Made by a program: the position numbers and the translations under genes
DNA from: Candidatus Pantoea bituminis
GTDB lineage: Bacteria > Pseudomonadota > Gammaproteobacteria > Enterobacterales > Enterobacteriaceae
Reading direction: 5' to 3'
Length of the DNA: 64,000 nucleotides
Assembly: GCF_018842675.1 (NCBI RefSeq)
Contig: NZ_JAGTWO010000004.1
Coordinates: forward strand, 2,232,001-2,296,000
Part shown: positions 4,258 to 62,378 of the stretch, piece by piece
Position numbering within the stretch: position 1 is the stretch's first letter
How the letters are laid out: every line of letters starts with the position of its first letter
The notes under the pieces: model-generated
Seen by the model: the letters and a program-made list of their open reading frames with translations, nothing else
What the model was told of the DNA's origin: nothing
The model's database searches: none

Positions 4258-5777
4258 TTAGAAGAAGCCCAGCGGCTGAATGCTGTAACTTACCAGCAGA
4301 TTTTTAGTTTGCTGATAGTGATCAAGCATCATTTTGTGGGTTTCACGGCCAATGCCCGATTTTTTGTAACCGCCAAATGCCGCATGTGCCGGATAAAGAT
4401 GGTAACAGTTGGTCCAGACGCGTCCGGCTTTGATTGCCCTACCCACGCGATAGGCGCGGTTGATGTCACGCGTCCAGACGCCGGCGCCCAATCCGTAAAT
4501 CGAATCATTGGCGATGCTGACCGCTTCCGCCTCATCTTTAAAGGTGGTAATACCGATCACCGGCCCAAAAATCTCTTCCTGGAACACCCGCATGCTGTTG
4601 TTGCCTTTCAGCAGCGTCGGTTGAATGTAATAGCCGCTGGAAAGCGATCCTTCCAGTTTTTCCACGCCTCCGCCCACCAGCACTTCTGCGCCCTCTTGCT
4701 GCGCAATCTCCAGATAAGAGAGGATTTTATCGAACTGCTGCTGTGACGCTTGCGCACCAATCATGGTTTCGGTATCCATCGGATCACCACGCTTGATGGT
4801 TTTGATGCGTTTTAACACGGCGGCCATGAAAGGTTCATAAATTGATTCTTGCACCAGCGCACGGGAAGGACAGGTACAGACTTCGCCCTGATTCAGGAAG
4901 CCGAGCACCACGCCTTCTGCGGCCTTCTCAATAAAGCTCTCTTCCGCCTGCATAATGTCTTCAAAAAAGATATTCGGTGATTTTCCGCCTAACTCAACGG
5001 TAGAAGGAATCAGGCTTTTCGCTGCCAGTTCGAGAATATGGCCGCCCGTGGCAGTTGAGCCGGTAAAGGCAACTTTGGCAATCCCAGGATGCGAGGCCAG
5101 CGCTTCACCCGCTTCTTTACCAAAGCCATGCACCACGTTTATGACACCCGGAGGTAATAGATCTTTGATCAGATCAACAAAAAGCGTGATAGAAAGCGGC
5201 GTCTGTTCTGCGGGTTTTAACACCACGCAATTGCCTGCCCCCAGCGCCGGAGCGAGTTTCCACGCCGCCATCAACAGTGGGAAGTTCCACGGGATAATCT
5301 GCGCGACCACGCCCAGCGGTTCATGGAAATGATAGGCCGCAGTAAACTCATCAATCTCCGCCGCACTGCCCTCTTGCGCCCGCACGCAGCCCGCAAAATA
5401 GCGGAAATGGTCAACAGCCAGCGGCATATCAGCAGCCAGGGTTTCACGTACGGGTTTGCCGTTATCCCAGGTTTCGTTTACAGCGATATATTCAAGATTC
5501 TCTTCCAGCCGATCGGCAATTTTTAACAGCACCAGCGCGCGCTGCTGCGGCGAGGTTTTACCCCATGCATCAGCGGCGGCAGCGGCGGCGGCCACGGCAT
5601 TATCGACATCAGCGCTATCAGAGCGCGGAAACTCCCCACGGTTGATCCGTTCACTGGCGAGGTATTGGTGAAGTAGTTGCCATTAACCGGCGCTACAAAC
5701 TCACCGTTAATAAAATTGCCATAGTTTTTTTGTAGCTGAATGAGAGAACCTTGTTCTCCGGGAGCGGCGTAACGCAT
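4258..5777 (-). pseudogene. AldB/ExaC-type NAD(P)-dependent aldehyde dehydrogenase, frameshifted
   Basis: Read across one frame change it encodes about 506 residues, the AldB length. It oxidises short aldehydes such as acetaldehyde to acids in the cytosol. Seen: the N-terminal [25 protein letters not shown], the cofactor motif FTGSTATGG, the catalytic ELGGKSPN, and the nucleophile in [11 protein letters not shown], with [11 protein letters not shown] near the end. ATG 5777 has AAGGAG upstream. The break lies at the C4 run 5634-5637: one more C restores STVGEFPRSD and gives the same spacing from PVNG to DVD as in E. coli AldB. The split is most simply a one-base homopolymer loss, so the gene may be intact in the organism. 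Confidence 0.85.
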
Positions 5778-6009
5778 GGTGTTTCTCCTTGTAGAGTGCA
5801 GGATGTAACAACAATTAAACTTATTATTAACATGGCTGATCTTCGTCAGACTGTCAGATTTAGAGAGAGGAAACTGTGACCGCGGCGAAGGAATAGTTGC
5901 GCGACGTAAAGCTACAGATAATTCCGACTTTTCCCCGCTGCGCTCACATAAAAGAAACTTGTCGCTGAGAAACAGTCAATATGGGGAAGTATTCATACAG
6001 GAGATCAGC

Positions 6010-6572
6010 ATGCTGGCTTCGGCTTTTACCTTAATGCGCAAAAAGCAGACTTCGTTCATCAGTTCATTCGTAATCCGCGCAAAATGGGCAGCATTACGCC
6101 TTCATCAGACACACTGTGCCGAGCCATGACCCATTCAGTCGCGTGGGATAATCAACTGAATATTGCGGAGTTGGGTGCAGGTGATGGGGTTCTAACCCGC
6201 CAACTTCTGGCGCGGATGTCGCCGGAAGCGACGCTGGATGTGTTTGAGATCAGCGGTTCGCTGGCAGAGAAACTTATCGCAATGGACGATCCTCGCATGA
6301 CGGTTCGTACCTGTTCAGCGGAATACCTTAACGGGAAATACGATGCCATTTTCTCTGGCCTGCCGCTGTTATCACTGCCGCCTGCTTTGCGTGATGCGAT
6401 CCTGCGAGCAGTATTTAATGCGTTAAGCCCAACCGGCGTATTTGTACAGTTTCAATATACGTCACTGACGCAACCCGATCTGTCGCGCTATTTCACCTGG
6501 GAACGCCAGCGGGTGCTTAAAAACGTGCCACCCGCCTGGGTTTATCGCTGCACGCGTAACTATGCGCCTTGA
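6010..6572 (+). pseudogene. Class I SAM-dependent methyltransferase (phospholipid N-methyltransferase-like), frameshifted start
   Basis: The long frame contains PRKMGSITPSS, then AELGAGDGVLTRQLL (SAM-binding motif I), DVFEISGSLAEKL and FSGLPLLSLP, a layout I associate with PmtA-like methyltransferases. ATG 6010 has AGGAG 6 nt upstream but is out of frame with the rest; one extra base near 6018 would give MLAFGFYLNAQKADF, which continues properly into the body. The only in-frame ATG (6084) has no ribosome site and would cut off conserved residues. The intact length would be about 187 residues. The gene ends convergent with the next, overlapping it by 13 nt. Confidence 0.7.
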
Positions 6573-7282
6573 GCCTGCTTGATTGCCGGGCGCGTCTGTA
6601 ACCAGAACGCGCTCAGCAACTCCCGCGCCCAGTCAGCGTCTTCTGCTTCTGCCCCGCTCATTTCCACACCTTCAGGCAAACATGCACGCATGATCTGCTG
6701 AGTAAATTCCGGGTGAAACTGCACAGATAATGCCTGCGGTGAATAGCGCACGATTTGACAGCCATCTTTGGCAGAATGCGCCAGCACCTGCGCTTGCGGC
6801 GGCGGTGTAATCACCGATTGTCGATGTGAAAGCCAGACACTGAAAGATTTAGGTAGTGCGGACAGCAGCGGATCCTGTTGCGCCTGCGCGCTGCACACCA
6901 GCGGCAATAAACCGCGTTCCCAGCCTTGCGGATTGTCTGCCACTTTACCGCCTAGCGCGTAGGACATCAGCTGATGCCCATAGCAAACGCCAAGCAACGG
7001 CAACTCAGCGTCGATAGCGGCGCGTACCCACGCCGCGCTGCGCTCGCTCCATTCGGCGTGGTCAGTCACCATCGCCCAGGAACCACTGAGAATAGCAGCG
7101 GAAATTTGGCTAAATTCAGGCAGCGCTTCACCCAAATGCGGGCGCACAATAACGTACTCATCGGGCTGTAAATCTAACGCGTCAATAAACCAGGCGGGCT
7201 GTTCGCCAATTTGTGCCACGACGTTTGCGGGAGGAACTTCTAGCTGAATTAAGGCAAGGGGTAATGCAGGCGTTTTTATCAT
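6560..7282 (-). CDS. Class I glutamine amidotransferase domain protein
   Basis: A 240-residue stand-alone GATase1 protein. Such domains release ammonia from glutamine, or act as gamma-glutamyl hydrolases, with a Cys-His-Glu triad. Seen: the nucleophile elbow GVCYGHQLM near residue 100, and QFHPEF with the His and Glu near residue 190. It resembles the YfeJ-type 'GMP synthase-like' proteins with no synthetase partner; the substrate is unknown. The start ATG 7282 faces away from the EamA transporter gene, and the end overlaps the methyltransferase end by 13 nt. Confidence 0.8.
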   Translation of the reverse strand: MIKTPALPLALIQLEVPPANVVAQIGEQPAWFIDALDLQPDEYVIVRPHLGEALPEFSQISAAILSGSWAMVTDHAEWSERSAAWVRAAIDAELPLLGVCYGHQLMSYALGGKVADNPQGWERGLLPLVCSAQAQQDPLLSALPKSFSVWLSHRQSVITPPPQAQVLAHSAKDGCQIVRYSPQALSVQFHPEFTQQIMRACLPEGVEMSGAEAEDADWARELLSAFWLQTRPAIKQAQGA

Positions 7283-7462
7283 ACCGAATCGAATCCTCTG
7301 CGAAGTGGGCGTTTCGGAAAATCAGTCTGCCAGCAATCGCCTTAAAAGTCTTATGATTTTCCATTCGAAGTAAAAACAGAAAATATCTTTCATCTCCTGA
7401 CAGAATGCCCCCAGATCGTGCCATCATTAGTGTGCAAAGGTAACTAATTAAAGGATGGTATT

Positions 7463-8346
7463 GTGGCGGCGCGGCATTTTTTTCTGGTCTTAATGGTGGT
7501 GTGTATCTGGGCCTTCAATAACGTAGCAGTGAAATGGGGCTTGCTGGAGTTACCGCCGCTGTTCCTGACGTGGATGCGTTTCGTGGTGGTCGCCATTATT
7601 TTGGTGCCGTTCTGCCGTATAAACCGGCAGCAATTCCCTGGCTGCTGCTGCTGGCCTTCACCTTCGGTTTTATGCACTTCTCGTTGCTGTTCGTCGGAAT
7701 GCGCTACACCGATGCCGGAACCGGCGCGATTGTGGTGCAGCTCGGCACGCCGATTGCCATGTTGCTGGCGATGGTGGTGCTGAAAGAGAAGCTAAAAATG
7801 GTGCAGCTGTTTGGCATTTTGGTTTCACTGAGCGGCGTGGTGGTGCTATCCGGCAGCCCAACCATTCCTACGTGGTGGGTACTATGCCTGCTGTTGTGCA
7901 GCGCTACCGGCTGGGCCGTCAGCAACCTGATCGTCAAAAAATCACCCTCGATTAAACCACTGACCATGACCGGCTGGATTGCCTTTTTGGCGGTTCCGAT
8001 TGTTGGCGTTGCTTCGTTAGTCATGGAATCTCATCAGCTGACGGCGTTGAGTCACGCAGGCTGGCGCGGCTGGTTTGCCATTTTTTACAGCGCTATCGCC
8101 TCGTCGATTGTTGCTTACACGCTGTGGTACATGCTGTTGAAAAAATACAACGTCAATTTGATCATGCCCTACTCGCTGCTGACGCCAGTCTTGTCGGTCT
8201 TGATGGGGATTGTGGTATTGGGTGACAGTCTGAACAGCTTTAAAATTATTGGCGCCTCGCTGGTGATTTTGGGGACAGCGATTGCCGTGATTAACCTGCG
8301 TAACCTGCGCATGCACGCACGTTTCCCGCGTCTTCGTCGACGTTAA
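7463..8346 (+). pseudogene. EamA/DMT-family membrane transporter, frameshifted
   Basis: Two frames join into a protein of about 294 residues with some ten hydrophobic segments and two EamA repeats, typical of drug/metabolite transporters (metabolite exporters of the inner membrane). The first frame gives the first segment (LVLMVVCIWAFNNVAVKWG) and the second gives WLLLLAFTFGF onward, ending in Arg-rich residues. The break lies between the T4 run at 7599-7602 and about 7622; one extra T would read IIFGAVLPYKPAAIPW. The start GTG 7463 has AAGGATGG 5-6 nt upstream. The substrate cannot be predicted. Confidence 0.75.
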
Positions 8347-8392
8347 AGCAGCGTGCTATGCTTGAGAGAACGTGATTCTCAGGAGCATAAAC

Positions 8393-9756
8393 ATGGACCA
8401 TCAGCTCGCCGCGTCACTTTGGCAGCAGATGTGGCAAGGATTGCGCGGCAATATTGCACCGCAACCGTTGCCCACCTTTGTTGATACCCGCACATTTCCC
8501 TCCGCTTATGCCGTCAGCGAACTGGCGGCCAGCAGCCTTGGCCTGGCGACCCAAGCTGCCGCAAACCTGATAACTTCATCGCAGCCCGTTGAGATAAACG
8601 TGCGGCTGGCTTCGCGCTGGTTTCAACACAGCTTCATGCCTCTTAACCGCCCTGCGCCCGCGTTATGGGATCCTTTTGCGGGCGATTACGCCAGCGCGGA
8701 TGGCTGGATACGTTTGCACACCAACGCCGCCCATCATCGCCAGGCGATGGAAAGCGTGCTGGGCCGGCATCCCGATCGCCAGGCATTAGCGCAGCAGGTG
8801 GCGCGATGGCAGACGACTGAACTGGAACAGGCGATTATTGCTGCTGGCGGTTGTGCCGCTGAGATGCGCAGCGCAGAAGCCTGGCAGCAGCATCCTCAAG
8901 GCCAGGCGGTGAATCAGGAACCGCTGATCGCCTGGCAAACCACTGCGCCCGGCCCTGTCCCCACCTGGAGACTGCCCACTGCACGTCCGCTGTTGGGCAT
9001 CAAAGTATTGGATTTAACCCGCATTATTGCCGGACCCGTTGCAACACGCTTTCTTGCCAGCCTCGGCGCGAATGTGCTGCGTATTGATCCACCCGGCTGG
9101 CAAGAGCCGACGCTGGATGAAGAGATCACCTGTGGCAAACGTCGTGCGGTGCTGGACTTAAACCTTCAGGCGGATCGCGAGACGTTCACTCAACTGCTGC
9201 GTGAAGCCGATGTTTTGGTGCAGGGTTATCGCGCCGATGCGCTGGAAAAGCTTGGATTTGATGCCGAAACGCGGCAGCAGCTGGCGCCCGGTTTAGTGGA
9301 TGTCAGCCTGAATGCATGGGGATGGCAAGGCCCATGGCGTAATCGTCGGGGTTTTGACAGCCTGGTACAGATGGGATGCGGCATTGCTGAACAAGGCATG
9401 CGCAGTCAACACAGCAATAAACCCACGCCGCTGCCCGTGCAGGCGCTGGATCATGCCACCGGCTATCTTATGGCGGCTGCGGTGCTGGAAGGATTGCGTC
9501 AGCGTAAAGAATCAGGCAATGGCAGCCAGGCGCGTTTATCGCTGGCGCGAACAGCGTTGATGCTGCAACAGCATCGCTATCCCGAGGAAGCCAGCAATCC
9601 GGTATTCATGCTGAAGTCAGCGATAATCTGGCGATGTTTGAGTTAACGCAATGGGGATTGGGCGTGCGCTTGCGTTCTGCGGCTTACCTTCCTGGCACCG
9701 CGCTGATCTGCGCGACGCCAGGATGCTTGCCGGGTACGCATCCGGCGAGCTGGTAA
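8393..9756 (+). pseudogene. CaiB/BaiF-family CoA transferase, frameshifted near the 3' end
   Basis: A class III CoA-transferase of about 454 residues, moving CoA between carboxylic acids through an enzyme-bound anhydride. Seen: LDLTRIIAGPVATRFLASLG, GANVLRIDPP and GKRRAVLDLN, the usual CaiB sequence, with a partial second copy of the fold at the N-terminus. The start ATG 8393 has AGGAG 7 nt upstream. Around 9580-9590 the frame changes: the current reading stops at 9646, whereas one extra base (C run or GG at 9583-9586) gives SGIHAEVSDNLAMFEL and reaches a TAA at 9754-9756. The gene ends 1 nt before the opposing ycdY stop. The substrate acid is unknown. Confidence 0.75.
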
Positions 9757-9757
9757 C

Positions 9758-10327
9758 TTATTCGTCGTCTTCGTCTTCTTCAGCGCTTTCGGCCAGTTCG
9801 TTATACATGGCCTGAATCGCTTCACGACTCAATGCAGCCAGCGTGCGATAAAACGCGCTGGTCGCATGCGCTTCGACTTTACCCAGAAACGCACCGCACC
9901 AAGGCAGTAAATAGCGTTCAAACAGCGCTAACTGGGCCGCACTTTCATCTTCCGCAGACTGATCTTCCAACCAGGAAGCCGCCAGCATCAACACGCCAAA
10001 ATGATCGGCAGGCGCATCGCTCAACGGCATTCCGCGTGAGGACAAAAATGCGCGGACTTCCGCCTCAGTTTTCCCTTCTGGCCATTGCGATGCATAAGGC
10101 GGAACTTTACAGTCGCTGCCGACAAACAGCGCGTTGTAGTCTGCGGCTAACGCCTGGGGATCGCTGCTCTGCTGCAAACGCTTTAACAGATCGTCTTGTT
10201 CCAGCGGCCATTGCGCCTGCAATTTGCCTTCACGCAACAGCGTAAACAGCGGCACCAGCAGCGGATCTTGCGGTTGGCGATTAAACAGCGAGCCGATCAC
10301 GCGGCACAGAATGGAAAACTCATTCAT
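9758..10327 (-). CDS. ycdY: TorD/DmsD-family chaperone YcdY
   Basis: A 189-residue all-helical cytosolic chaperone of the TorD family with DYNALFVG and PPYASQWPEG, typical of the group; the C-terminus is very acidic (EEDEDDE). In E. coli YcdY assists zinc loading and activity of YcdX, encoded directly upstream here too. It is the last gene of ghrA-ycdX-ycdY, 26 nt after ycdX. The start ATG 10327 has AGGA 8-9 nt upstream. Confidence 0.85.
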   Translation of the reverse strand: MNEFSILCRVIGSLFNRQPQDPLLVPLFTLLREGKLQAQWPLEQDDLLKRLQQSSDPQALAADYNALFVGSDCKVPPYASQWPEGKTEAEVRAFLSSRGMPLSDAPADHFGVLMLAASWLEDQSAEDESAAQLALFERYLLPWCGAFLGKVEAHATSAFYRTLAALSREAIQAMYNELAESAEEDEDDE

Positions 10328-10353
10328 GAGTCAGAATCCTTGAAGCAATAAAG

Positions 10354-11091: not shown

Positions 11092-11148
11092 CTTTTTCTC
11101 CTGCTGATCGCCCGTCATGGGCTGGGATAAAAAACAGAGCTTTAATAA

Positions 11149-18858: not shown

Positions 18859-20276
18859 TTAACTGTGCTGATAACAACTTACGCCCAGATAGTTGCTGAA
18901 CGCTTCTTGCAACACCGCGGCAGTGGCTGAATGGTTCATCGCCACATGATGCTCAAAACCGTTACGGCAGATCCACGCCAGTAAATTTTCCAGTTGAGGC
19001 ACCTGAATCACAGCGCGGCATCCCACTGTGTCCAGTGGATCGTCAACGGATAACCCTTCTCCGACGTAAGCCTTGATCTCGCCGTTAAAATCATCCGTCG
19101 AGAGGCGGAAATAGGTCAGGTCCCCGCTTTTCATTCGTCCATGCACCGCGCCGCAGGTGTTCTCTTTTCCGACGGTAGTGCCAATGATATCGGCGGTTCC
19201 CATGGTCGGTGATTCCAGGCTGGCGCTGGCAAAGTTGCCGCAATGGAACAGCACGCATTTATCGCGATCGTCACCGAAATTATTATTCCAGTCCGCTAAC
19301 GACGCGGGATTGAGCGAACAGCTGGCCAGCGCATACATCGACAGCGCGCCCATTACGTCAACCTCACACGCACTGGGCATCAGTTGGCCTGACATCACAC
19401 TCATAATGGAGCAGACATTGATGCCAAGGTTCTCCTGTAACGACGTCCAGCACTGAATTGCGGTGGTATCGATATCATTTTCATTCACCCACTCGCTGAT
19501 CACCACAAACAGCTTCGCCATAGTTTGCAGCTTTTCATCGGGGATGCCGCGCGCGTCGGCGTTCGCTTCAAGAATTTCACGCTTTTCGGCTACCCGAATA
19601 TCATCGTCACGCAGCCGCTTGATGCGGCTAAAAATTTCTGACAGATCGAGGGTTTCTACCGCGATGCCCATCTTTTCCAGCAATTTTTCACTGTATCGCA
19701 CGGTATTAAACCCCGCCGGACGCGCACCAATCGCGCCAACGCGTACCCGCCGCATGGCGTGGACGACCCGGCACAACTGGGTGAAACGCTGCAAATCTTG
19801 CATGAATATTTCACCGCTTAAGGCGCAAACGTGCTGACGCGTTAAGCTGAAAGGAATGCCATATTGGCGCAGGTTATTGCACAGCGAGATCTTGCCGCAG
19901 AAGCTGTCGCGGCGCGTCGCCAGTCCCATTTTATCGAGATTATCTTCTTCTGCCTGCACCAACACCGGCACATTCAGTCCCGAAAGACGCAACGCTTCCG
20001 CAATCGCTTTTTCATCGCCAAAATTAGGCAGTAAAACCACGATGCCGTGAATATTGTCACGATGCTGGCGGAACAGCTCGGCGCAGGTTTTGGCTTCCTG
20101 GCGCGTTTCAACACCGCCGAGGTTGGTTTGCGATTCATTCAACATCACGGTATTGATATTGAGTTTTTCAAACAGCGCTACCGCCTGCTGGCGCGCTTCG
20201 CCCACCAAATAGCTGGGGAAAAACCGCGGTTGCCAATGATGACGCCGAAGGTCAACTGCTGAGGAAGTTTTGACAT
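18859..20276 (-). pseudogene. L-fucose/L-arabinose isomerase-family protein, frameshifted near the start
   Basis: Read across one frame change this is a protein of about 472 residues starting MSKLPQQLTFGVIIGNRG, with LLPNFGDEKAIAEAL and a C-terminal isomerase domain (NHSATAAVLQEAF at the end). The family interconverts aldoses and ketoses with a divalent metal. The break is at the A5 run 20219-20223: one more A gives GNRGFFPSYLVGEARQQ, a clean continuation. The start ATG 20276 is 19 nt after the kinase stop. Within this operon it would isomerise the imported sugar; if the apiose hypothesis holds, D-apiose to D-apulose. The homopolymer suggests the break may not be real. Confidence 0.75.
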
Positions 20277-20295
20277 TGCTCTGCTCCGAAGAAAG

Positions 20296-21782
20296 TTATT
20301 GTGGCTGATAGCGGCAACGGGCCACCGCATCGAGCCAGCCTTTATAGTTTTCCTGCATTTTTTGCGCGTGGTGTTCACGCGGCAGAATTACGCTGCCGCC
20401 TTGAAGCGCCTGCATTTCATTGCCCTGCTGCCACCAACCCAGCACTTTTCCTGCCAGCAAAGCGGCCCCCAGCGCAGAGACTTCAGCGGTTGGCACGCGA
20501 TGAAGCGGACGCTGTAGTACATCGGCCTGTAGCTGCATCAGCCAGCCGTTTTCAGTTGCGCTGCCATCCACGCAGAGCGCGGGAAGGTGCTGGCCGCTGG
20601 CTTGCTCCATGGCGAAGAACACGTCAGCGATTTGAAAGGTGATCGACTCTAACGCGACGCGCGCTAAAACCGCGGGTGTGGCGGCATCTGTCAGCCCACA
20701 CACCATGCCGCGGGCTTTGAGATCCCACCAGGGCGCGCCCAGTCCCGAGAGTGCTGGAACAAAATAGATGCCTTGATTATCAACGGTGCTTTCTGCCAGC
20801 GCAGTCAACTCGCGTGGATCTTGAATACCCAACATTTTACCCAGCCAAGCCGCGCCCGAACCGGTGTGAGTAATGTTGCCTTCAAAGGCATAACGCAGCT
20901 CGCCGTCATGCCACGCCACGGTGGTGCTCAAACCATTTTCGGTCATCAATGGCGTTGCCATTGACATCATCAGTGATGAACCGGTGCCATAAGTGGCTTT
21001 TACCACTTCTGCGTCGCCCCGGCGTTGGGCCTGTAACGCCGCATGAGAATCGCCGATACGCGCCAGGATTGGTGTGCCCGGTGATAAACCCGCAATGTCA
21101 TTCACGGCCACCACACCCTGTTCACTGGCCGAGGGGTAATGGTCGGAAGCGCCGCGCGCGGCAGCTGAAAAAGGGCCAGCAGCTCATCGTCCCAGTCATT
21201 ACGGTGCAAACTGTAAAGCTGGGTGCGTGCCGCGTTGGCATGATCGGTAATAAAACAGTCGCCTGCAGTAAGTTGCCAGGTAAGCCAGCTCTCCACAGTG
21301 CCGATGCACAGTTCGCCCGCAGCTGCACGCGCTGCGCCGTCGGGAATGGCTGCCAGCATGCCGGTGAGCTTGGCAGCAGGAAACATCGGGTCAACCGCCA
21401 GGCCGGTCAGACCGGTGATGCGCGGCGCTTTTCCTGCCTGATGCAGATCGCGACAAAACGATTCGGATCGGCGATCCTGCCAGCTCACCAGCGGCGTGAG
21501 CGGCGTGCCGTTGCTACGCTGCCAAATCAACACCGATTCACGCTGATTACTGATCGCGACCGCCGCAACGGATGCGCCAGCACACTGCGCCAGACATTGT
21601 GTGATCGCCTGCTTAACTGCCTGCCAGATGGCCATGGGATCCTGCTCCGCCAGCCCCGGCTGCGGATGTTCCAGCGTCAAACTCTGGCTGCCGCGTGCCA
21701 CCACCTTGCCCAGACGATCAACCGCAATCGCTTTTGCATTGGTGGTGCCTTCGTCAATCGCCAGAATCACAGGTTCTGTCAT
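20296..21782 (-). pseudogene. FGGY-family carbohydrate kinase, frameshifted
   Basis: Two frames join to a kinase of about 496 residues. The N-terminal half has ILAIDEGTTNAKAIAVD (phosphate 1 loop), ISNQRES and WQDRR; the C-terminal half has GDSHAALQAQ, ATYGTGSSLMMS, GLGAPWW and ALGAALLAG (adenosine-binding end), all FGGY features. It phosphorylates a ketose or polyol with ATP. The break is at the G4 run 21133-21136; one more base gives TPSASEQGVVAVNDI. It sits 2 nt after the transketolase gene and just before the isomerase. D-apulose kinase is a candidate role from context; glycerol or xylulose kinase-like roles are alternatives. Confidence 0.78.
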
Positions 21783-23641: not shown

Positions 23642-24747
23642 TTAACCTTTTGCTTCACCGCCCTCCTCTATCAGCGCTTTCTGCGCAACCACAGCGGCTT
23701 TTTGCTGCATACGATTCTGCGTCTGATCAATGATAACGGCGATGATAATGACGATGCCTTTGATCACCATCTGCCAGAATTCGCTCACGCCCATCATGAT
23801 TAATCCATCAGCCAGAAAGCCAATAACGAAAGCGCCGATTAAGGTGCCGAGAATAGTGCCGCGTCCCCCGCCAGCGAGGTTCCACCTAACACCACTGCGG
23901 CAATCGCATTCATTTCGAAGGCGGTGCCGTTAGCGGGATGGCTCGCCACCAGTTGCGACGACACCACGATGCCCGCTATCGCGGCGCAAAAACCGGACAG
24001 CGTATAGACCCATATTTTGACCCGTTTAGTCCTGACGCCTGAAAGCTCAGCCGCACGTTCATTATCACCAATGGCATAAACCTGACGGCCAAACGGCAGC
24101 CGACGGGCGATATAGGCGATAACCAGCGCCAGCACAACCATCATCCAGATGGCGTAAGGTAAGCCGAGGAAATTGCCTGCCCCGATTTTATCGAATCCGG
24201 TGTTGCCCAGTTGCGGATTGCCTTGCAGACCGGGAAAGGTTTCGCCACCGGAAGTCAACATCGCGGCACCGCGTAGGATATACATCGTGCCGAGCGTGCA
24301 GATAAACGGGGCCACGTTATAGCGGGTGATGATCCAGCCGTTACCTGCGCCAATTAAGGCGCCGACCAGCAGAACAATCGGTACGATGAGCCAGACATCC
24401 AGGAAAATCGCGATACCAAACCACGGCAGCACAATGCCTTTAGTGATCAGCCAACCCGCAATCATGCCGCATAGACCCAGCGTGGCGCCGATGGAAAGAT
24501 CGATGCCGGCGGTGATAATGACAAAAGTGATACCCAGCGCCAGAAAGGCGTTAATGGCGATGTGTTTCACCATGATCACCATACTGCCCACCGCGAGAAA
24601 GTCCGGCACAGTAATGGAAAAGAAGCCGACGATAAGAATCAGCGCAATAAAGGTGCGCAGCTTCAGCAGCAGTAGCAGAAAGCTTTCGCGCGAATTAAAC
24701 GCCTTGACGGGTTGAGTGGCCAGCGCCACGGCTGGATTGGTTTTCAT
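23642..24747 (-). pseudogene. Rbs-type sugar ABC transporter permease, frameshifted near the 3' end
   Basis: An inner-membrane permease of the RbsC/BPD_transp_2 family with about ten hydrophobic segments: NAFLALGITFVIITAGIDLS, GWIITRYNVAPFI, and the late AAVVLGGTSLAGG motif that contacts the ATPase. The C5 run at 23865-23869 shifts the frame inside GGTSLAGGRGT; one more C restores GTILGTLIGAFVIGFLADGL and a stop at 23642, for a total of about 368 residues. It is 2 nt after the ATPase gene. The break is at a homopolymer and may be artefactual. Confidence 0.82.
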
Positions 24748-30725: not shown

Positions 30726-31387
30726 TTGAAGCCGCTGTATGACGATTTGTGGATCTCAACCCCGGAATTTCCGGTGGAAGATGCCGTTAATGATTTAATG
30801 ATGCACGGGTTTATGTTGCGTCATCCACGCGGCAACCTGTTGATTGGTCGTGTAGAAAACCCCTCGACCATGAAGTGTTAGCCGATGCCGGCGGCGTGAT
30901 CCGTCACTACCTAACGCACTGGCATGAATCTGCACCCGGTGCGGCAATAATTCAGCAACGCTTTAATAGCGCGCTCTATTGCCATAATCGTTCGCTCGGG
31001 CCTATCAGCCGTTTTGTTGAGCCTGACGACACCTTCAGCCAGCAGGAAACCCACTTTGGTGATTTTCATCTGCTGCCCACGCCAGGCCATACACCCGGCA
31101 GCTGTAGCTTTCTCTATCACTCGCCGCTGGGCCTGACTTATCTTTTTGTCGGCGATACCATTACACGGTCGCACGAGCGCTGGATCAGCGTATTGGTGCC
31201 GGATAGCAATCCTGCTGAGTTGAAAAAGTCGCTGGAGTTTTTCCGCACGCTACGGCCTGATGTGGTGCTGATGAGCACCACGCGCGGGCATCTTTCGTGG
31301 AAAAAGGTGACGTTACAAAGTTGGTTAGCGGCGATAGATGAAGCGGAGCAACAGCCGCTGGATTTGCGCCAGCAGCCGCTGTTTTGA
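30726..31387 (+). pseudogene. MBL-fold metallohydrolase-like protein, frameshifted
   Basis: Joined over one frame change this is about 220 residues. The start TTG 30726 (LKPLYDDLWISTPEFP) has GGGAG 7 nt upstream. At the C4 run 30860-30863 the frame breaks; one more C gives ENPLDHEVLADAGGV and continues. The beta-lactamase fold is suggested by LLIGR, THWHESAPG, LLPTPGHTPGSCSF and FVGDTIT. The usual HxHxDH motif is reduced to HWHES, so metal binding and activity are doubtful or altered. It follows ldcA by 25 nt and may be co-transcribed. Confidence 0.7.
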
Positions 31388-32709: not shown

Positions 32710-32891
32710 TTATTCCGCTGCGACCTCTGCCGCAACTAACATCAGTGCTAATCCAGCATAATCATCATCATACGCCTGCATGACTTCACGAATTGCACCG
32801 GCACACGCATTGACTTGCTGCTTTTTTCAACGTCAAGCTTCTCAATCGCGTGCTGAATAATCATTAGACTGGCTTCTTCTTCTTTCATCAT
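32710..32891 (-). pseudogene. Small protein of unknown function, frameshifted
   Basis: A gene too short for most ORF finders. ATG 32891 (MMKEEEASLMIIQHAIEKLD) leads to an A6 run (T6 at 32822-32827 on the plus strand); with one more A it reads EKKQQVNACAGAIREVMQ and AYDDDYAGLALMLVAAEVAAE to a TAA at 32710-32712, about 60 residues, all helical and acidic. As written it ends early at 32750 or so. The coherent amphipathic sequence on both sides of the run argues for a real gene. I know no function. Confidence 0.55.
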
Positions 32892-33102
32892 TTATCCCTG
32901 GTTTTGCTTAACTGTCGCGCAAAGATGGCAAGAATACCGTTTAACTGTTACCAAAGTCACCCTTTTACATTCCTGTTGCTTACCTATTAAACAAATAGCA
33001 AATGGGAACCTGCTTTAAAACTGCTATGATCAAGCTATTAGTGACGCAACGCGATAAAATCAGCGCCACCGGATTCCCAGGGATTGAAGCAGGAACAGGA
33101 TC

Positions 33103-37909: not shown

Positions 37910-38577
37910 ATGCGCCGATTGTTTCTGACTGCAAAGCCTATGCGAAAAACTTCTCAACGAATTCACCAGGATAAACGATTCAGCCGCCCAGCACGTCCGG
38001 TACGGCGATCGCCCACGCGCCCAGATGCACCGCGGCGCGTCATACTCTTTAACAAACCTTTTGACGTGTTACCGCAATTTACTGACGAAGCGGGACGGCG
38101 CACGCTGAAAGATTACGTAAGCGTTAGCGATGTTTACGCCGCAGGTCGGCTGGACCGCGACAGTGAAGGTTTGATGGTGCTCACCAACAATGGCGCCTTG
38201 CAGGCCGCGCTTACGCAGCCTGGCAAGCGCACCGGCAAGCTCTATTTTGTGCAGGTTGAAGGCGAGCCGCAAGAGAGCGATCTGCAACCGCTACGCGATG
38301 GCGTTAATCTGAAAGATGGCCTGACGCTGCCCGCAGGTATAGAAAAAGTCGCCGAACCAACGTGGTTATGGCCGCGTCAACCCCTATTCGTGAACGCAAA
38401 AACATCCCCACGCAGTGGCTTAAAATTACCCTGTATGAAGGGCGTAATCGCCAGGTTCGCCGCATGACAGCACATATCGGTTTCCCTACACTGCGCCTGA
38501 TTCGCTATGCGATGGGGAATTTTACGTTGGATGATTTGCCTTCTGGCGAATGGTGCGATGTCACTGAAACGCCCTAA
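37910..38577 (+). pseudogene. rluE: 23S rRNA pseudouridine(2457) synthase RluE, frameshifted
   Basis: Two frames join to about 221 residues matching RluE over the full length: [19 protein letters not shown], the catalytic Asp in [32 protein letters not shown], and then [20 protein letters not shown]. The C4 run at 38381-38384 breaks the frame; one more C gives [18 protein letters not shown], which agrees with NPPIRERKSIPTSWLK in E. coli. A housekeeping gene broken by one base in a C run is a likely sequencing indel. It is divergent from icd and upstream of nudJ. Confidence 0.9.
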
Positions 38578-55347: not shown

Positions 55348-55596
55348 GGAATCCAATGTGCGGTTGCCTGAAAATGAGTAGTGGGATGATAAAGGAGCCG
55401 CTTGCTTTATGAAACCTCTAACCCTCTGAGTCTGCGGCAAAGTTGCGTCAGAATACGTCATCAGCAACGTTCATCGGCAGGAATGCGACAAAAAGATGAT
55501 GCTAATTGTACGATTATCCGGCAGCGGGTGCGGTAGACTACAATCAGATAGACGATAAGAGGTTAAATATCGCGCAGACGTAAAGAGGTAGCGACC

Positions 55597-55806: not shown

Positions 55807-55914
55807 AGCCCATTCAGAGGCTACGCGGCACTAAAATTGTGCCGCAGAGGTGATCCCCTTGGCGTAATATGGAATGATTACGCCTTGGTAAAAATGGAGA
55901 AACCTCGAGATCCC

Positions 55915-58900
55915 ATGTCCGAACAGACTCGCTATACCCTGCCCGTAAAATCCGGTGATACGCGCCAGCTCGGTCAGCTGATCGGCGCCGCGCACGCGGT
56001 CGAGTGTGCCAACATCGCCGAGCGTCATGCTGGCCCGGTGCTGATGATTACGCCGGATACACAAACCGCCTTGCGTTTACTGGATGAAATCCGCCAGTTT
56101 ACTGACCTGCCGGTTAGCCATCTCGCTGATTGGGAAACGCTGCCTTACGATAGCTTCTCGCCACATCAGGACATTATCTCGGCTCGGCTTTCCACGCTTT
56201 ATCAATTACCGACCTTGCAGCGCGGCATGCTGATTCTTCCAGTCAACACGCTGATGCAACGTGTGTGTCCGCACAGTTTCTTGCATGGCCACGCTTTGGT
56301 GATGAAACAAGGGCAAAAACTGTCGCGCGATCGCCTACGCGATCAGCTGGAGCAAGCCGGTTATCGTCACGTCGATCAAGTCATGGAACATGGTGAATAC
56401 GCCACGCGCGGTGCGCTGCTTGATCTGTTTCCGATGGGCAGCGAACAGCCTTATCGCATCGACTTCTTCGATGATGAAATCGACAGCCTGCGTCTGTTTG
56501 ACGTTGATAGCCAGCGCACGCTCGAAGCGGTGCCGGAAATCAACCTGCTGCCCGCACATGAGTTTCCCAGCGATAAAGCCGCGATTGAACTGTTCCGCAG
56601 CCGCTGGCGCGAAATTTTTGACGTACGCCGTGAACCGGAACACATCTATCAGCAGGTGAGTAAAGGCACCTTCCCCGCCGGTATCGAATATTGGCAGCCG
56701 CTGTTTTTTGATCAGCCTTTGCCTACGCTGTTTAGCTATTTGCCGGATAACACGCTGCTGGTTAACTGTGGCGATCTGGAAGGCAGCGCCTCACGTTTCT
56801 GGCAAGACGCCAATGCGCGCTATGAGAATCGCCGTGTTGATCCGATGCGCCCGCTGCTTGAGCCCGTCACGCTTTGGCTGCGCCCGGATGCGCTGATGGG
56901 CGAGCTAAAAAGCTGGCCGCGTGTGCAAATGACCAACGATGAGTTACCCGAAAAAGCCGCGAATACCAATCTTGGTTATCAGCCCCTTCCCGATTTAACC
57001 GTGCAGGCCCAGGCCAAAGCGCCGCTGGATCATCTACGCCAGTTTTTGGAGCAATTCCACGGCGCGGTAACGTTCTCGGTAGAGAGCGAAGGTCGTCGCG
57101 AAAGCCTGCAAGAGCTGTTGGCTCGCATCAAACTTCGGCCGCAGCTGGTACATCGTCTTGATGAAGCGAGTGAAGAGCGCTACACCTTTATGATTGGTGC
57201 CAGTGAACGTGGTTTTATTGATACGCAAGGCCATCGTGCGCTGATCTGTGAAGGTGATCTGCTTGGCGAACGCGTCAGTCGCCGCCGCCAGGATACACGT
57301 CGCACCATAAATCCCGACATCCTGATTCGTAACCTGGCTGAATTGCATCCGGGTCAACCGGTGGTGCATCTGGAGCATGGTGTGGGCCGTTATATTGGCT
57401 TGACCACGCTTGAGGCGGGCGGCATTCAGGCCGAATATTTGATGCTCTCTTATGCCAACGACGCCAAACTCTATGTCCCGGTTTCATCGCTGCATCTCAT
57501 TAGTCGTTACGCCGGTGGCGCAGACGAAAATGCGCCGCTGCACAAATTAGGCAGCGATGCCTGGTCACGTGCGCGACAAAAAGCGGCGGAGAAAGTACGC
57601 GATGTGGCGGCTGAGTTGCTGGATATTTATGCCCAACGCGCCGCCAAAACAGGCTTCGCCTTCAAGCACAACCGCGATCAATATCAGCTGTTCTGTGAAG
57701 CTTTTCCTTTTGATACGACGCCCGATCAGGCACAGGCCATCAATGCGGTATTGAGCGACATGTGTCAGCCGCTGGCCATGGATCGTCTGGTTTGCGGTGA
57801 TGTTGGGTTTGGTAAAACCGAAGTCGCGATGCGTGCGGCGTTTCTGGCGGTTGAAAACAACAAGCAGGTCGCGGTGCTGGTGCCCACGACGTTACTGGCT
57901 CAGCAACATTATGATAATTTCCGCGATCGCTTTGCTAACTGGCCAGTACGCATTGAAATGCTTTCACGTTTCCGTACGGCCAAAGAGCAAGCACAGGTGT
58001 TAGAACAAGCCAGTGAAGGCAAAATCGATATCCTGATCGGTACGCATAAGTTATTGATGACTGACTTGAAATGGCGTGATTTAGGTCTGTTGATCGTTGA
58101 TGAAGAGCACCGCTTTGGTGTGCGACACAAAGAGCGCATCAAGGCGATGCGTGCAGATGTCGATATTCTGACGCTCACCGCCACACCGATTCCGCGTACC
58201 CTGAATATGGCCATGAGCGGGATGCGCGATCTGTCGATCATTGCAACGCCTCCTGCACGTCGTTTGGCAGTAAAAACTTTTGTGCGTGAGTTTGATAATT
58301 TAGTGATTCGCGAGGCGATCCTGCGTGAAGTGCTGCGTGGTGGACAGGTTTATTATCTCTATAACGACGTCGAAAATATCGAAAAGGCCGCACAGCGCTT
58401 GACTGAACTCGTCCCGGAAGCACGCGTCGCCATTGGCCATGGTCAAATGCGCGAGCGCGATCTGGAACGGGTCATGAATGATTTCCATCACCAGCGTTTT
58501 AATGTGCTGGTCTGTACCACCATTATTGAAACCGGTATCGATATTCCAACGGCTAACACCATTATCATTGAGCGTGCAGATCATTTCGGTTTGGCTCAAC
58601 TGCACCAGTTGCGTGGTCGCGTCGGACGATCGCACCATCAGGCTTACGCCTGGCTGATGACGCCGCCGCCCAAAGCGATGACCACCGATGCCAAAAAGCG
58701 TCTCGAAGCCATTGCTTCGCTAGAAGATTTGGGAGCTGGTTTTGCACTTGCCACCCACGATTTAGAAATTCGTGGCGCGGGCGAGTTGCTGGGTGAAGAG
58801 CAAAGCGGGCAAATGGAAACCCTGGGCTTCTCGCTCTATATGGAGTTGTTAGAGAATGCCGTGGATGCGCTGAAAGAGGGCCGTGAGCCGTCGCTTGAGG

Positions 58901-59358
58901 ATTTGACCAACAATCAGACCGAAGTCGAGCTGCGCATGCCTGCCCTGCTGCCGGAAGAGTTTATTCCGGATGTGAATACCCGCTTGTCACTCTACAAGCG
59001 CATCGCCAGCGCCGAAGACGAATCTGAGCTGCAAGAGTTGAAGGTAGAGATGATTGACCGCTTTGGCTTGTTACCCGATCCGGCGCGAAATCTCCTTGAT
59101 ATCGCCGCATTGCGGCTTAATGCGCGAACGCTGGGCGTGCGTAAAATCGAAGCCAGCGACAAAGGCGGCTTCTTTGATTTCGCTCCGCAAAACAGCGTGG
59201 ATCCTGCATGGCTGATTAGCTTATTGCAGAAAGATCCCAAGCAGTGGAAGCTTGATGGCCCAACGCGTCTACGCTTTACCCGTGAGCTGGCAGAGCGCAA
59301 GGTTCGTATGGAATGGGTGCAGGGATTCGTGGCGCAGCTGGCGCAGAACCGGGCTTAA
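55915..59358 (+). CDS. mfd: Transcription-repair coupling factor Mfd
   Basis: A 1147-residue DNA translocase that removes RNA polymerase stalled at lesions and recruits UvrA. Domains in order: UvrB-like N-terminal part (ADWETLPYDSFSPHQDIISA), RNA-polymerase-interaction domain around 475-545 (GQPVVHLEHGVGRYIGLTTL), RecG-like helicase motor with Walker A GDVGFGKTEVAMR near 625, VDEEHRFGVRHKER, TATPIPRTLNMAMSGMRDL and the motif VI region QLRGRVGRSHHQAY, and the C-terminal UvrA-masking domain. I set the start at ATG 55915 (GAGA 6 nt upstream; E. coli begins equally); the frame extends 78 nt further. Confidence 0.97.
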   Translation: MSEQTRYTLPVKSGDTRQLGQLIGAAHAVECANIAERHAGPVLMITPDTQTALRLLDEIRQFTDLPVSHLADWETLPYDSFSPHQDIISARLSTLYQLPTLQRGMLILPVNTLMQRVCPHSFLHGHALVMKQGQKLSRDRLRDQLEQAGYRHVDQVMEHGEYATRGALLDLFPMGSEQPYRIDFFDDEIDSLRLFDVDSQRTLEAVPEINLLPAHEFPSDKAAIELFRSRWREIFDVRREPEHIYQQVSKGTFPAGIEYWQPLFFDQPLPTLFSYLPDNTLLVNCGDLEGSASRFWQDANARYENRRVDPMRPLLEPVTLWLRPDALMGELKSWPRVQMTNDELPEKAANTNLGYQPLPDLTVQAQAKAPLDHLRQFLEQFHGAVTFSVESEGRRESLQELLARIKLRPQLVHRLDEASEERYTFMIGASERGFIDTQGHRALICEGDLLGERVSRRRQDTRRTINPDILIRNLAELHPGQPVVHLEHGVGRYIGLTTLEAGGIQAEYLMLSYANDAKLYVPVSSLHLISRYAGGADENAPLHKLGSDAWSRARQKAAEKVRDVAAELLDIYAQRAAKTGFAFKHNRDQYQLFCEAFPFDTTPDQAQAINAVLSDMCQPLAMDRLVCGDVGFGKTEVAMRAAFLAVENNKQVAVLVPTTLLAQQHYDNFRDRFANWPVRIEMLSRFRTAKEQAQVLEQASEGKIDILIGTHKLLMTDLKWRDLGLLIVDEEHRFGVRHKERIKAMRADVDILTLTATPIPRTLNMAMSGMRDLSIIATPPARRLAVKTFVREFDNLVIREAILREVLRGGQVYYLYNDVENIEKAAQRLTELVPEARVAIGHGQMRERDLERVMNDFHHQRFNVLVCTTIIETGIDIPTANTIIIERADHFGLAQLHQLRGRVGRSHHQAYAWLMTPPPKAMTTDAKKRLEAIASLEDLGAGFALATHDLEIRGAGELLGEEQSGQMETLGFSLYMELLENAVDALKEGREPSLEDLTNNQTEVELRMPALLPEEFIPDVNTRLSLYKRIASAEDESELQELKVEMIDRFGLLPDPARNLLDIAALRLNARTLGVRKIEASDKGGFFDFAPQNSVDPAWLISLLQKDPKQWKLDGPTRLRFTRELAERKVRMEWVQGFVAQLAQNRA

Positions 59359-59410
59359 TGTTGAAAGGGACTGATTCACATTGCTCGGAGTAATATCTGA
59401 TGTGAAACAA

Positions 59411-59442
59411 AAAAAGCGCATCATCCCTGATGCGCTTCTCTT
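59411..59442 (+). terminator. Terminator of mfd
   Basis: AAGCGCATCA and TGATGCGCTT arms with A-rich left side and CTCTTATTGTTT after, soon downstream of the mfd stop. Confidence 0.75.
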
Positions 59443-59485
59443 ATTGTTTGCTGTGTGGCCGCTAACGCGGCAAATCTTTGCCCAA

Positions 59486-60027
59486 TCAAGCCTGATCGTT
59501 GTTAAGAATCAGCTGGCCATTACGGTCGAGTGGAATACGCGTACCAGGATCGTTTTCCGTACGGATTTTGCCCTGTTGATTGCCTATTTTATAGGTCACG
59601 TCATATCCCAGCATTTTTTCTTGCTTGTCATAAACCGTTTTGCAGCGCTGTTCCGTGGTGGTGTAAGTATCACGGTTTTGCATTCCGGCCTGAACCTGAT
59701 TGCCTGCGTAACCGCCTGCAACCGCACCTGCTACGGTTGCGACATCCTTACCGCGACCGCCACCGAACTGGTGACCTAAAACGCCCCCGCGACTGCACCT
59801 AACACTGAGCCCGCAATACGGTTATCATCCTGCACCGCACGACGATGAGTCAGCGTTACGTTGCGACATTCCTTGCGCGGCTGTTTGATACTTTCTTTAA
59901 TTGGCGTTGCTGACAGCACCTGCGCATATTGCGGCCCGCGGTCAAACACGTTCATACCCGCTACGGCGGCAACACCCAGCGCCGCTGCCACACCAATACC
60001 GATACCCGCTAACATTGATTTATTCAC
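59486..60027 (-). pseudogene. ycfJ: YcfJ-like glycine-zipper membrane protein, frameshifted
   Basis: Joined over one frame change this is about 180 residues matching E. coli YcfJ (179): MNKSMLAGIGIGVAAALGVA with one membrane span, QYAQVLSATPIKESI, a Gly-zipper (GSVLGAVAGG...), and the C-terminal RCKTVYDKQEKMLGYDVTY and GQLILNN. The C5 run 59784-59788 breaks the frame inside the zipper; one more C restores VAGGVLGHQFGGG. It sits between mfd and ndh as in E. coli. Function unknown; the envelope is likely. Probably intact in the organism. Confidence 0.85.
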
Positions 60028-60295
60028 AGGAAGTTCCTCCTGAAAGTGTTACCGCGCATTCCTGCCGCTGTCGCATCCTTCACAGCAGAGGCCTAACTCG
60101 GCGTGCGCGACCCGCCGTGTTTGTTGAATGAAGTTTTACAGATGGACCGAAATTGCAACATCAGATAAATGGAGGAAATCTATACAAGAGCCTTCAGGTC
60201 CAGCTTTTAGGAGAGTTCCGAACGAGGCGGGAAAGCGCTGATCTCAACGGAGAAATGAAATTTTCTAGTTTGAAATCAGCGTAATAGCAATATGA

Positions 60296-60313
60296 AAGGC
60301 GGTAAGCCGCCTT
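60296..60313 (-). terminator. Hairpin after ndh
   Basis: AAGGCGG and CCGCCTT arms with a 4-base loop directly after the ndh stop, followed on the minus strand by TCATATT. Confidence 0.6.
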
Positions 60314-60319
60314 ATCATC

Positions 60320-61624
60320 TTAATGCAGCTTGAGGCGTGGACGTATAACGCGGTTGATACTGCCTACTAACATCATCAGACCCGTTTTGAAGTATCCGTG
60401 GAGCGCAATCTGGTGCATACGATATAAGGAAATGTAGACAAAACGCGCAATGCGTCCTTCTACCATCATCGATCCACGCATCAGGTTACCCATCAGGCTT
60501 CCGACCGTACTGAAGCGCGACAGTGATACCAGCGAGCCGTGATCTTTATAGACATAGGCTTTCAAGGGCTTGTTATTGCGCTGCGCCAGAATATTTTCCA
60601 TCGCACGTGAAGCCATTTGGTGTGCAGATTGTGCACGTGGTGGCACAAACCCACCGGATGGCAACGCACAGGAAGCACAATCGCCGATGGCATAAATATC
60701 ATCGTCCAAGGTGGTTTGCAGCGTATCTTTTACCACCAGCTGATTAATGCGGTTGGTTTCCAACCCACCAATCTCTTTCATGAAGTCAGGCGCTTTGATT
60801 CCTGCCGCCCATACCATCAGGTCCGCTTCGATATATTCGCCGCCTTTGGTATGCAGACCTTTTTTGTCGGCACTGGTCACCATGGTTTGCGTCAGCACGC
60901 GTACGCCAAGCTTGGTCAACTCTTGGTGCGCCGCTGCCGAAATACGCGGTGGCAAGGCAGGAAGAATGCGTTCGCCCGCCTCAACCAGCGTCACGTTCAG
61001 CGCTTCACTGCCCAAACCTTTGTAGCCATAACTGTGTAATTGCTTAACCGCATTGTGCAACTCGGCAGAGAGCTCAACGCCGGTTGCACCGCCACCGACA
61101 ATGGCAATATTGACCTGTCCAGTCTGACCTTCACTTGCAGAGAATTTCAGGAACAGGTTAAGCATTTCATTATGGAAACGACGTGCCTGATGCGGGTTGT
61201 CGAGGAAAATGCAGTGATCTTTTACGCCCGGCGTGCCGAAATCATTTGAGGTGCTGCCCAGCGCCATCACCAAAGTGTCGTAAGGCACTTCGCGCTGTGG
61301 AACCAGCACTTCACCTTGTGCATCCAGCACTTCTGCCAGAGAGATAACCTTCTTCTCGCGGTTGATGTCGGTTAAGGAACCCAGCTGGAACTGGAAGCCA
61401 TGATTGCGGGCGTGTGCCAGATAACTCAGCGCATCAATCCCTTCATCCATGGAGCCAGTCGCCACTTCATGCAGCAGCGGTTTCCATAAATGACTGTGAT
61501 TGCGGTCGACCAAAATGATCTCAGCTTTGTTTTTTCGGCCCAGTTTATGGCCAAGCTGTGTTGCCATTTCAAGACCGCCGGCGCCGCCTCCGACGATGAC
61601 AATTTTCTTAATAGATGTAGTCAA
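60320..61624 (-). CDS. ndh: NADH dehydrogenase II (NADH:quinone oxidoreductase)
   Basis: A 434-residue FAD enzyme at the inner membrane that passes electrons from NADH to quinone without pumping protons. Seen: FAD loop [40 protein letters not shown] loop [17 protein letters not shown] near 175, AIGDCASC near 310 and a hydrophobic C-terminus with [15 protein letters not shown] chose TTG 61624, the second of two TTGs, as GAGGGG lies 6 nt upstream and the length then equals E. coli Ndh. A perfect FNR site lies 135 nt upstream. Confidence 0.96.
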
Positions 61625-61758
61625 CAATGACCCCCTCAAATTGTGAACCAATAGTTAATCAATGGTTAAATTAAACCTTAATAAACATAGGGTTGGCGAA
61701 GTTAAAATCGCTATCTGAAGGCAGAATAACATGCTGCGAAGTGCGGGGCACAGCAAAA

Positions 61759-61772
61759 TTGATTTACATCAA
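61759..61772. promoter_or_regulatory. FNR site upstream of ndh
   Basis: TTGATTTACATCAA is a perfect match to the FNR consensus TTGAT-N4-ATCAA, located 135 nt before the ndh start. E. coli ndh is repressed by FNR without oxygen. Confidence 0.8.
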
Positions 61773-61810
61773 ATTTATGAGCTAAAACTCAGAATATTAC
61801 GCATAAAATC

Positions 61811-61831
61811 AAGGCACCTGAGAGGTGCCTT
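61811..61831 (-). terminator. Terminator of ycfP
   Basis: A 9-bp stem AAGGCACCT/AGGTGCCTT with a 3-base loop just after the ycfP stop; GATTTTAT follows on the minus strand. Confidence 0.75.
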
Positions 61832-61836
61832 AACTA

Positions 61837-62378
61837 TTAACCTAATGTTTTAAAAGCTTTTATTCGCTGAAGATGGGGAGAGATATTCTTAAATTTATGG
61901 CCTTCATTTTCATCCCACACAATTTCATAAAAGGGGTGCAGAACCTGCGCGATGCGTTGACCATCAAGCGCTTCATCTTTACGTGACAAAATAGCTAAAC
62001 AGCGATCACGGTTTTTTCGCGGAAGTCGCTTACACACTTGGTAGCAATATCTTCATACTCTTCAGGACGATCAATTTTCCCTTCCATGTTTTCATAAGGG
62101 AAAAGATTGGGATTGAAGATTACCTGCCGGATACCACATAAAAAGCCAATGCGTTCAGACCAATAGCCACCCAGCCCCACGCCACAGATCAGTGGACGAT
62201 CGTCATCACACAGCGTGATCATTTTGTCCGTCTCTTTTAGCAGAAACTGCATGTCATGTTTAGGATGACGCGTGCTGTAACTGATCATTCGCACATCGGG
62301 ATCGATGAATTGCAGTTGCAACACTTTTTCGTGATTGCCCGGGCTATTGGAATCAAAACCGTGCAGATAAATAATCAT
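61837..62378 (-). pseudogene. ycfP: YcfP, UPF0227 esterase-family protein, frameshifted
   Basis: Joined over one frame change this is 180 residues with the alpha/beta-hydrolase pattern: [20 protein letters not shown] at the start, the elbow [17 protein letters not shown] (GxGxGG, Gly in place of the usual Ser) and the terminal [20 protein letters not shown] with His. The T6 run 62012-62017 breaks the frame; one more base gives [19 protein letters not shown]. The start ATG 62378 has AGGA 6 nt upstream. It sits between ndh and nagZ as in E. coli. A conserved gene split at a homopolymer is probably intact in the organism. Confidence 0.87.

What the first reader, a model, noticed from the sequence alone, without database searches (positions are those of the whole stretch)
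5634..62017. Twelve genes each broken by one missing base, mostly in homopolymers
Frames rejoin after adding one base at: C4 5634-5637 (aldehyde dehydrogenase), near 6018 (methyltransferase), 7599-7622 (EamA), 9583-9590 (CoA transferase), A5 20219-20223 (isomerase), G4 21133-21136 (kinase), C5 23865-23869 (permease), C4 30860-30863 (metallohydrolase), T6 32822-32827 (small gene), C4 38381-38384 (rluE), C5 59784-59788 (ycfJ), T6 62012-62017 (ycfP). All are contractions, never a clear expansion, and they hit housekeeping genes. Assembly indel error is the simplest explanation; a mutator strain or decaying genome is the alternative.
Basis: partly seen in the sequence, partly recalled or inferred. 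Interest (0 to 1): 0.75.

Follow-up and report, generated by a model that had tools for sequence, protein, structure and literature searches.

The report
Nanopore assembly errors, not broken genes
Twelve genes look broken because the published genome was assembled from nanopore reads alone, which tend to lose single bases in runs of the same letter; genes no cell can live without are 'broken' in the same way, so this is ordinary sequencing error.

Summary
In detail: all 12 single-base frame breaks are in the sequence, all in one direction (one base short), each supported by 2 to 5 relatives. The window lies on a contig of 4,008,183 bp in a 5-contig assembly, the figures published for Pantoea sp. 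EnvD (Ca. Pantoea bituminis); the paper describes MinION R9, Guppy 4.4.2 and Flye, and does not mention polishing or short reads. The same -1 pattern runs through 100 kb next door and through the ribosomal/RNA-polymerase gene clusters, where rpoB, nusG and the genes of ribosomal proteins S5, S7, S8, L3, L4, L22 and L24 are broken; such a cell could not live. EnvH, sequenced in the same study, has the same pattern; four other Pantoea-group genomes have very few. Coding sequence after the breaks is as conserved as in intact genes. A broken-looking mutL tempts one to a mutator story, but it is the same kind of break. Not a biological feature; useful as a warning about two type genomes.

The parts
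4261..5840 (-). Aldehyde dehydrogenase gene (ExaC-like); frame break at 5633-5639
   Evidence: 4 of 4 donors show a one-base shortage; NCBIfam AcaldDHExaC 835 bits on the larger piece, below that model's cut-off of 900; Pfam Aldedh
6010..6569 (+). Methyltransferase gene (lipid N-methyltransferase-like); frame break at about 6036-6042 (reader said 6018)
   Evidence: 4 of 4 donors; DNA alignment; OlsG and PmtA matches far below their cut-offs, Methyltransf_25 just above its cut-off; start taken from the sequence (ATG at 6010)
7463..8343 (+). EamA-family transporter gene; frame break at about 7634-7640 (reader said 7599-7622)
   Evidence: 4 of 4 donors; DNA alignment; Pfam EamA
8393..9753 (+). 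CoA-transferase family III gene; frame break between 9575 and 9593, exact place unsure; the least conserved of the set
   Evidence: 3 of 4 donors, the fourth being a truncated copy; Pfam CoA_transf_3
18865..20317 (-). Sugar isomerase gene (fucose-isomerase C-terminal domain); frame break at about 20219-20225
   Evidence: 2 of 2 donors; Pfam Fucose_iso_C
20299..21782 (-). FGGY carbohydrate kinase gene (glycerol-kinase-like); frame break at 21133-21137
   Evidence: 4 of 4 donors; family matches
23663..24747 (-). Sugar ABC transporter permease gene; frame break at 23865-23871
   Evidence: 3 of 3 donors; Pfam BPD_transp_2
30726..31384 (+). Metallo-hydrolase gene (Lactamase_B superfamily; weak glyoxalase-II match); frame break at 30858-30864
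   Evidence: 4 of 4 donors; family matches
32713..32960 (-). Small gene without family match; frame break at 32822-32828
   Evidence: 4 of 4 donors; a relative's protein has no NCBIfam match
37910..38571 (+). rluE (23S rRNA pseudouridine synthase) gene; frame break at 38381-38384
   Evidence: 5 of 5 donors; NCBIfam RluE 224 bits on the piece before the break, below the cut-off of 284
59489..60027 (-). ycfJ-like gene (glycine-zipper domain); frame break at 59784-59790
61840..62390 (-). ycfP (UPF0227) gene; frame break at 62012-62018; the sister assembly EnvH breaks at the same place
   Evidence: 2 of 3 donors, 3 of 3 with the cleaner gene set; Pfam UPF0227; shared place

Best explanation
The twelve breaks are consensus errors of a nanopore-only assembly (Pantoea sp. 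EnvD, Ca. Pantoea bituminis). The R9 pore and its basecaller under-call the length of single-letter runs in the same way in most reads, so high coverage does not vote the error out; the Flye consensus keeps a sequence one base short and the reading frame shifts. Shown: provenance (by exact contig figures), one-sided sign, run association, the same pattern in the sister assembly from the same study, rarity in other genomes, and impossible breaks in essential genes. Inferred: that the reads themselves carry the shortage at these 12 places (reads not examined).
For: Identity: contig C4 is 4,008,183 bp in a 5-contig assembly, the figures given for EnvD contig 4 in PMC9022320, which describes SQK-LSK109, R9, Guppy 4.4.2 and Flye and has no occurrence of 'polish', 'medaka', 'Illumina' or 'short read'. 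Essential genes: 9 of 37 genes scanned in two 20-kb stretches are broken, all -1, none +1: rpoB, nusG, rpsG, rplC, rplD, rplV, rplX, rpsH, rpsE (names from the intact P. agglomerans homologues); independently, the RpoB family PF00562 is found in two pieces in this genome and in one open frame in 4 of 4 others. Sister assembly EnvH: 50 -1 and 3 +1 in 138 genes; other genomes: P. agglomerans HJS002 0 and 0 in 105 genes, SOD02 2 and 1 in 107, G010 0 and 3 in 105, M. mediterraneensis 1 and 0 in 79. Runs: 28 of 32 EnvD events beside a run of 4 or more (13.5% expected); EnvH 48 of 56 (15.3%). A/T runs of 8 or more: about 1 in 204 kb of EnvD and 2 in 217 kb of EnvH, against about 4 to 10 per 100 kb in the four other genomes. 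Past the breaks in nine of the twelve genes, 126 of 717 differing codons are non-synonymous (17.6%), against 21.1% in intact genes. Literature passages seen: uncorrected nanopore systematic errors are mainly indels in homopolymers that shift reading frames (PMC8011154); deletions after homopolymers and inflated pseudogene counts in MinION assemblies (PMC12007338).
Against: Raw reads were not examined. The runs are short as they stand (4-6), whereas long runs are the classic trouble for R9 (recalled). One solid +1 occurs in the EnvD sample (about 101632 of the 164-kb stretch, 4 of 4 donors), so the bias is strong but not absolute. Depletion of long runs is clear only for A/T runs of 8 or more: G/C runs of 6 or more are as rare in SOD02 as in EnvD, and A/T runs of 6 are more frequent in EnvD and EnvH than in the others. 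The non-synonymous share before the breaks (184 of 686, 26.8%) is higher than in intact genes, and the CoA-transferase gene is divergent on both sides. ycfP is broken at the same place in EnvH, and by other lesions in M. mediterraneensis, so that one could be real. Passages of PMC8011154 report Flye drafts of R9.4 data dominated by insertions, so the deletion-only sign is not universal for this technology.
Confidence: 0.98

Rival explanations
1. A real mutator strain: loss of mismatch repair lets one-base slips pile up in runs. The deposited mutL is itself frame-broken.
For: mutL has one -1 break in EnvD and two in EnvH against 3 of 3 donors; the lesions sit at runs.
Against: mutS is open in EnvD; the mutL break is of the same kind as the others, so it is a product and not evidence of a cause; the sign is nearly one-sided (20 -1 to 2 +1, one of the latter at a variable gene start; 9 to 0); essential genes are broken.
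Confidence: 0.01
2. Real genome decay (host restriction or relaxed selection) inactivating many genes.
For: Many broken genes across the sampled stretches; estimated completeness 95.96%; the relative M. mediterraneensis has a few substitution-type stops.
Against: No stop supported by two or more donors in the window except two explained by longer donor N-termini; lesions almost all of one size and sign; essential genes hit at least as often as others: 9 in 30.0 kb (7 under the end margin used elsewhere) against 20 in 130 kb; non-synonymous share after the breaks no higher than in intact genes; environmental isolate, 5.2 Mb genome.
Confidence: 0.01
3. Real frameshifts made good in expression by transcriptional slippage or programmed frameshifting on the runs.
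For: Would explain why broken essential genes are tolerated and why the breaks sit at runs.
Against: By extrapolation it would have to act at hundreds of unrelated places and on short G/C runs; the essential-cluster genes show no frame break in three other genomes; the sequencing method already explains the pattern.
Confidence: 0.003

Closest known systems
Systematic homopolymer indel errors of nanopore (R9) consensus assemblies
   Same: One-base errors at short runs that shift reading frames and create false pseudogenes (passages of PMC8011154, and PMC12007338)
   Different: Nearly pure deletions here; PMC8011154 reports many insertions for Flye drafts of R9.4 data
Pseudogene-rich genomes of recent symbionts (e.g. 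Sodalis glossinidius; PMC7067036, seen only as a search listing)
   Same: Many broken genes
   Different: Here essential genes are broken, lesions have nearly one size and sign, and constraint after the breaks is not lost

Membership tests
Nanopore-only consensus error | Assembly made from nanopore reads without short-read correction | tested here: met
Nanopore-only consensus error | One-base indels concentrated at runs of one letter | tested here: met
   28 of 32 EnvD and 48 of 56 EnvH events, against 13.5% and 15.3% background
Nanopore-only consensus error | No respect for gene essentiality | tested here: met
   9 of 37 genes in RNA-polymerase and ribosomal clusters broken
Nanopore-only consensus error | Independent accurate reads show open frames | not testable with these tools
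   Reads SRP316834 exist according to the paper but cannot be fetched here; no short reads are mentioned
Real pseudogenization | Essential genes spared | tested here: not met
Real pseudogenization | Mixed lesions including stop codons, and relaxed constraint after the break | tested here: not met
   Only start- or end-region stops supported in the window; 17.6% non-synonymous after breaks against 21.1% in intact genes, nine of twelve genes counted
Mismatch-repair mutator | Both gains and losses in runs | tested here: not met
   20 -1 to 2 +1 and 9 -1 to 0 +1
Mismatch-repair mutator | A mismatch-repair gene truly inactivated | tested here: inconclusive
   mutS open; mutL carries the same kind of break as the other genes

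The most novel reading that the evidence does not exclude
Not all twelve are artefacts: ycfP may be under real loss in the clade of P. bituminis, P. haifensis and M. mediterraneensis, since it is broken at the same place in EnvD and EnvH and by several different lesions in the separately sequenced M. mediterraneensis. Against it: an essential gene (rpsH) also breaks at the same place in EnvD and EnvH, and ycfP beyond the break still changes mostly synonymously (28 synonymous to 7 non-synonymous codons).
Probability: 0.07. Interest if true: 0.15.

Novelty: not a real feature. Interest (0 to 1): 0.06.

Why it matters
It does not change biology, but it matters for data use. EnvD and EnvH serve as nomenclatural types of two Pantoea species (passages of PMC10665919), and any pseudogene count, gene-loss claim or protein-based comparison from these two assemblies will be inflated with false breaks. 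Even rpoB, one of the five genes used to place EnvD, is frame-broken in the assembly searched here.

Tried and rejected
DNA methylation as a trigger was tested by motif counts around the breaks: CCWGG within 9 bases in 3 events where 1.2 were expected (EnvD) and 7 against 2.8 (EnvH); GATC 3 against 2.6 and 1 against 4.3. A mild CCWGG excess is possible, but run association explains far more; not pursued.

The seven 23S rRNA copies of the genome were compared: inside the gene two columns differ by one missing base in short runs (3 of 7 and 2 of 7 copies). Compatible with error but also with real variation among copies; not used as evidence. A first alignment was useless because three copies were in the other orientation.

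The first essential-gene scan was contaminated by antisense open frames; it was replaced by a scan with codon-usage-filtered gene calls. One search used a smaller end margin (4 residues) than (12); with 12, NusG and L24 would drop out. Events near gene starts (for example 12281, 55473, and several in the other genomes) come from differing start sites; the raw counts that include them are given.

Whether each run was shortened or two short runs were fused could not be decided from relatives that match at 70-85% identity.
Full report
What was checked. Their blastn pieces match the window at 70-85% identity and cover 27 to 59 kb of it. Proteins called in the relatives were aligned to the window DNA with a scheme that permits frame changes at a penalty, and the same was done with every relative as target.

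The observation. All 12 breaks are there, each a one-base shortage supported by 2 to 5 donors. No +1 event and no interior stop is supported by two or more donors in the window apart from those explained by differing gene starts or ends.

Where the sequence comes from. The window is G000:C4:2232001-2296000 of a 5,222,323-bp assembly in 5 contigs; contig C4 is 4,008,183 bp long. The BMC Genomic Data paper on Pantoea EnvD and EnvH gives 5 contigs and a largest contig of 4,008,183 bp, contig 4 covering the chromosome, for EnvD (PMC9022320; part 1 of 2 of the text read). The genome was sequenced by MinION with an R9 flow cell and LSK109, basecalled with Guppy 4.4.2 and assembled with Flye at 155x; a term search of the text finds no mention of polishing, medaka, Illumina or short reads. 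EnvD is the type of Pantoea bituminis and EnvH of Pantoea haifensis (passages of PMC10665919). That the window is EnvD is inferred from these matching figures.

The pattern is not local. With the four non-sister genomes as donors, 164 kb of EnvD (window plus the next 100 kb) has 20 -1, 2 +1 and 1 stop events in 134 genes (130,155 bp); nine of the 20 are in the window. EnvH, from the same study, has 50 -1, 3 +1 and 1 stop in 138 genes (132,141 bp). The others as targets: HJS002 0, 0, 0 in 105 genes; SOD02 2, 1, 4 in 107; G010 0, 3, 2 in 105; M. mediterraneensis 1, 0, 4 in 79. How those four were sequenced was not established (one look-up failed).

Essential genes. In two 20-kb stretches around rpoBC and the ribosomal-protein operons, 9 of 37 EnvD genes are broken, all by -1 (30,020 bp). 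Their intact P. agglomerans homologues are RpoB, NusG and ribosomal proteins S7, L3, L4, L22, L24, S8 and S5 (NCBIfam equivalogs). The breaks in NusG (residue 6 of 181) and L24 (residue 93 of 104) are near the ends and so less telling; the other seven are interior. The three comparison genomes show no frame break in 30, 33 and 30 genes (one stop call in G010, at the end of a fetched stretch), and EnvH shows 6 -1 and 2 +1 in 36. A separate family search finds the RpoB domain PF00562 split into two pieces in this genome and whole in 4 of 4 others, EnvH included. A cell with these lesions could not make RNA or protein (established knowledge), so the lesions cannot be in the organism.

Why runs, and why one-sided. 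Of 32 EnvD events 28 lie within 7 bases of a run of 4 or more (13.5% by chance), and of 56 EnvH events 48 (15.3%). A/T runs of 8 or more are nearly absent from both nanopore assemblies; the picture for G/C runs and for runs of 6-7 is not clear-cut. PMC8011154 states that uncorrected nanopore systematic errors are mainly indels in homopolymers that shift frames, though its Flye drafts had more insertions than deletions (passages); PMC12007338 attributes deletions after runs to conservative length calls and reports inflated frameshifted pseudogenes in a MinION assembly (passages).

Alternatives. Decay: coding sequence past the breaks in nine of the twelve genes has 126 non-synonymous among 717 differing codons against P. 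agglomerans (17.6%), and before the breaks 184 of 686 (26.8%); intact genes in the window have 1343 of 6362 (21.1%). The three genes that the scan had not flagged (methyltransferase, isomerase, small gene) were not in that count. Inheritance: EnvD and EnvH breaks coincide at 3 of 22 EnvD events in 123 shared genes (one of them the start-site artefact; the others ycfP and one more gene) and at 1 of 9 in 33 genes of the essential set, rpsH; since rpsH is essential, a shared place there means a shared difficult run rather than descent. Mutator: mutS is open in EnvD and mutL carries one -1 break, but it is one of many and proves nothing.

Verdict. The only reserve is ycfP, which is also damaged in M. 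mediterraneensis.

Noticed in passing
L092 about 5807 and 16543; L093 about 7067-7330 and 9072 (Mixta/Pantoea mediterraneensis): Stop codons by substitution in four genes within about 24 kb (recalled as hflD-, cobB-, ycfP- and thiK-like by position), plus two frame changes in ycfP. Looks like real decay or substitution errors in that assembly; not settled.
   Followed up: partly
L119:11373-12863 (P. agglomerans HJS002): An amidohydrolase gene (Pfam Amidohydro_1) in a stretch of about 2 kb between what should be, by gene order (recalled), the genes of ribosomal proteins S17 and L14, where EnvD has only about 170 bases.
   Followed up: partly
window 1-4257: No long collinear match to the relatives' stretches, only short or weak protein hits; several short open frames, one with a sub-threshold DUF6862 match; may be the end of a large contact-dependent-inhibition type gene (recalled, not tested).
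   Followed up: no
G000:C4:327741-329362; L170: mutL appears broken once in EnvD and twice in EnvH, and mutS is split in EnvH; anyone mining these assemblies could wrongly call both strains mutators.
   Followed up: yes
L155-L161: Seven 23S rRNA copies; two one-base length differences in short runs among copies.
   Followed up: partly
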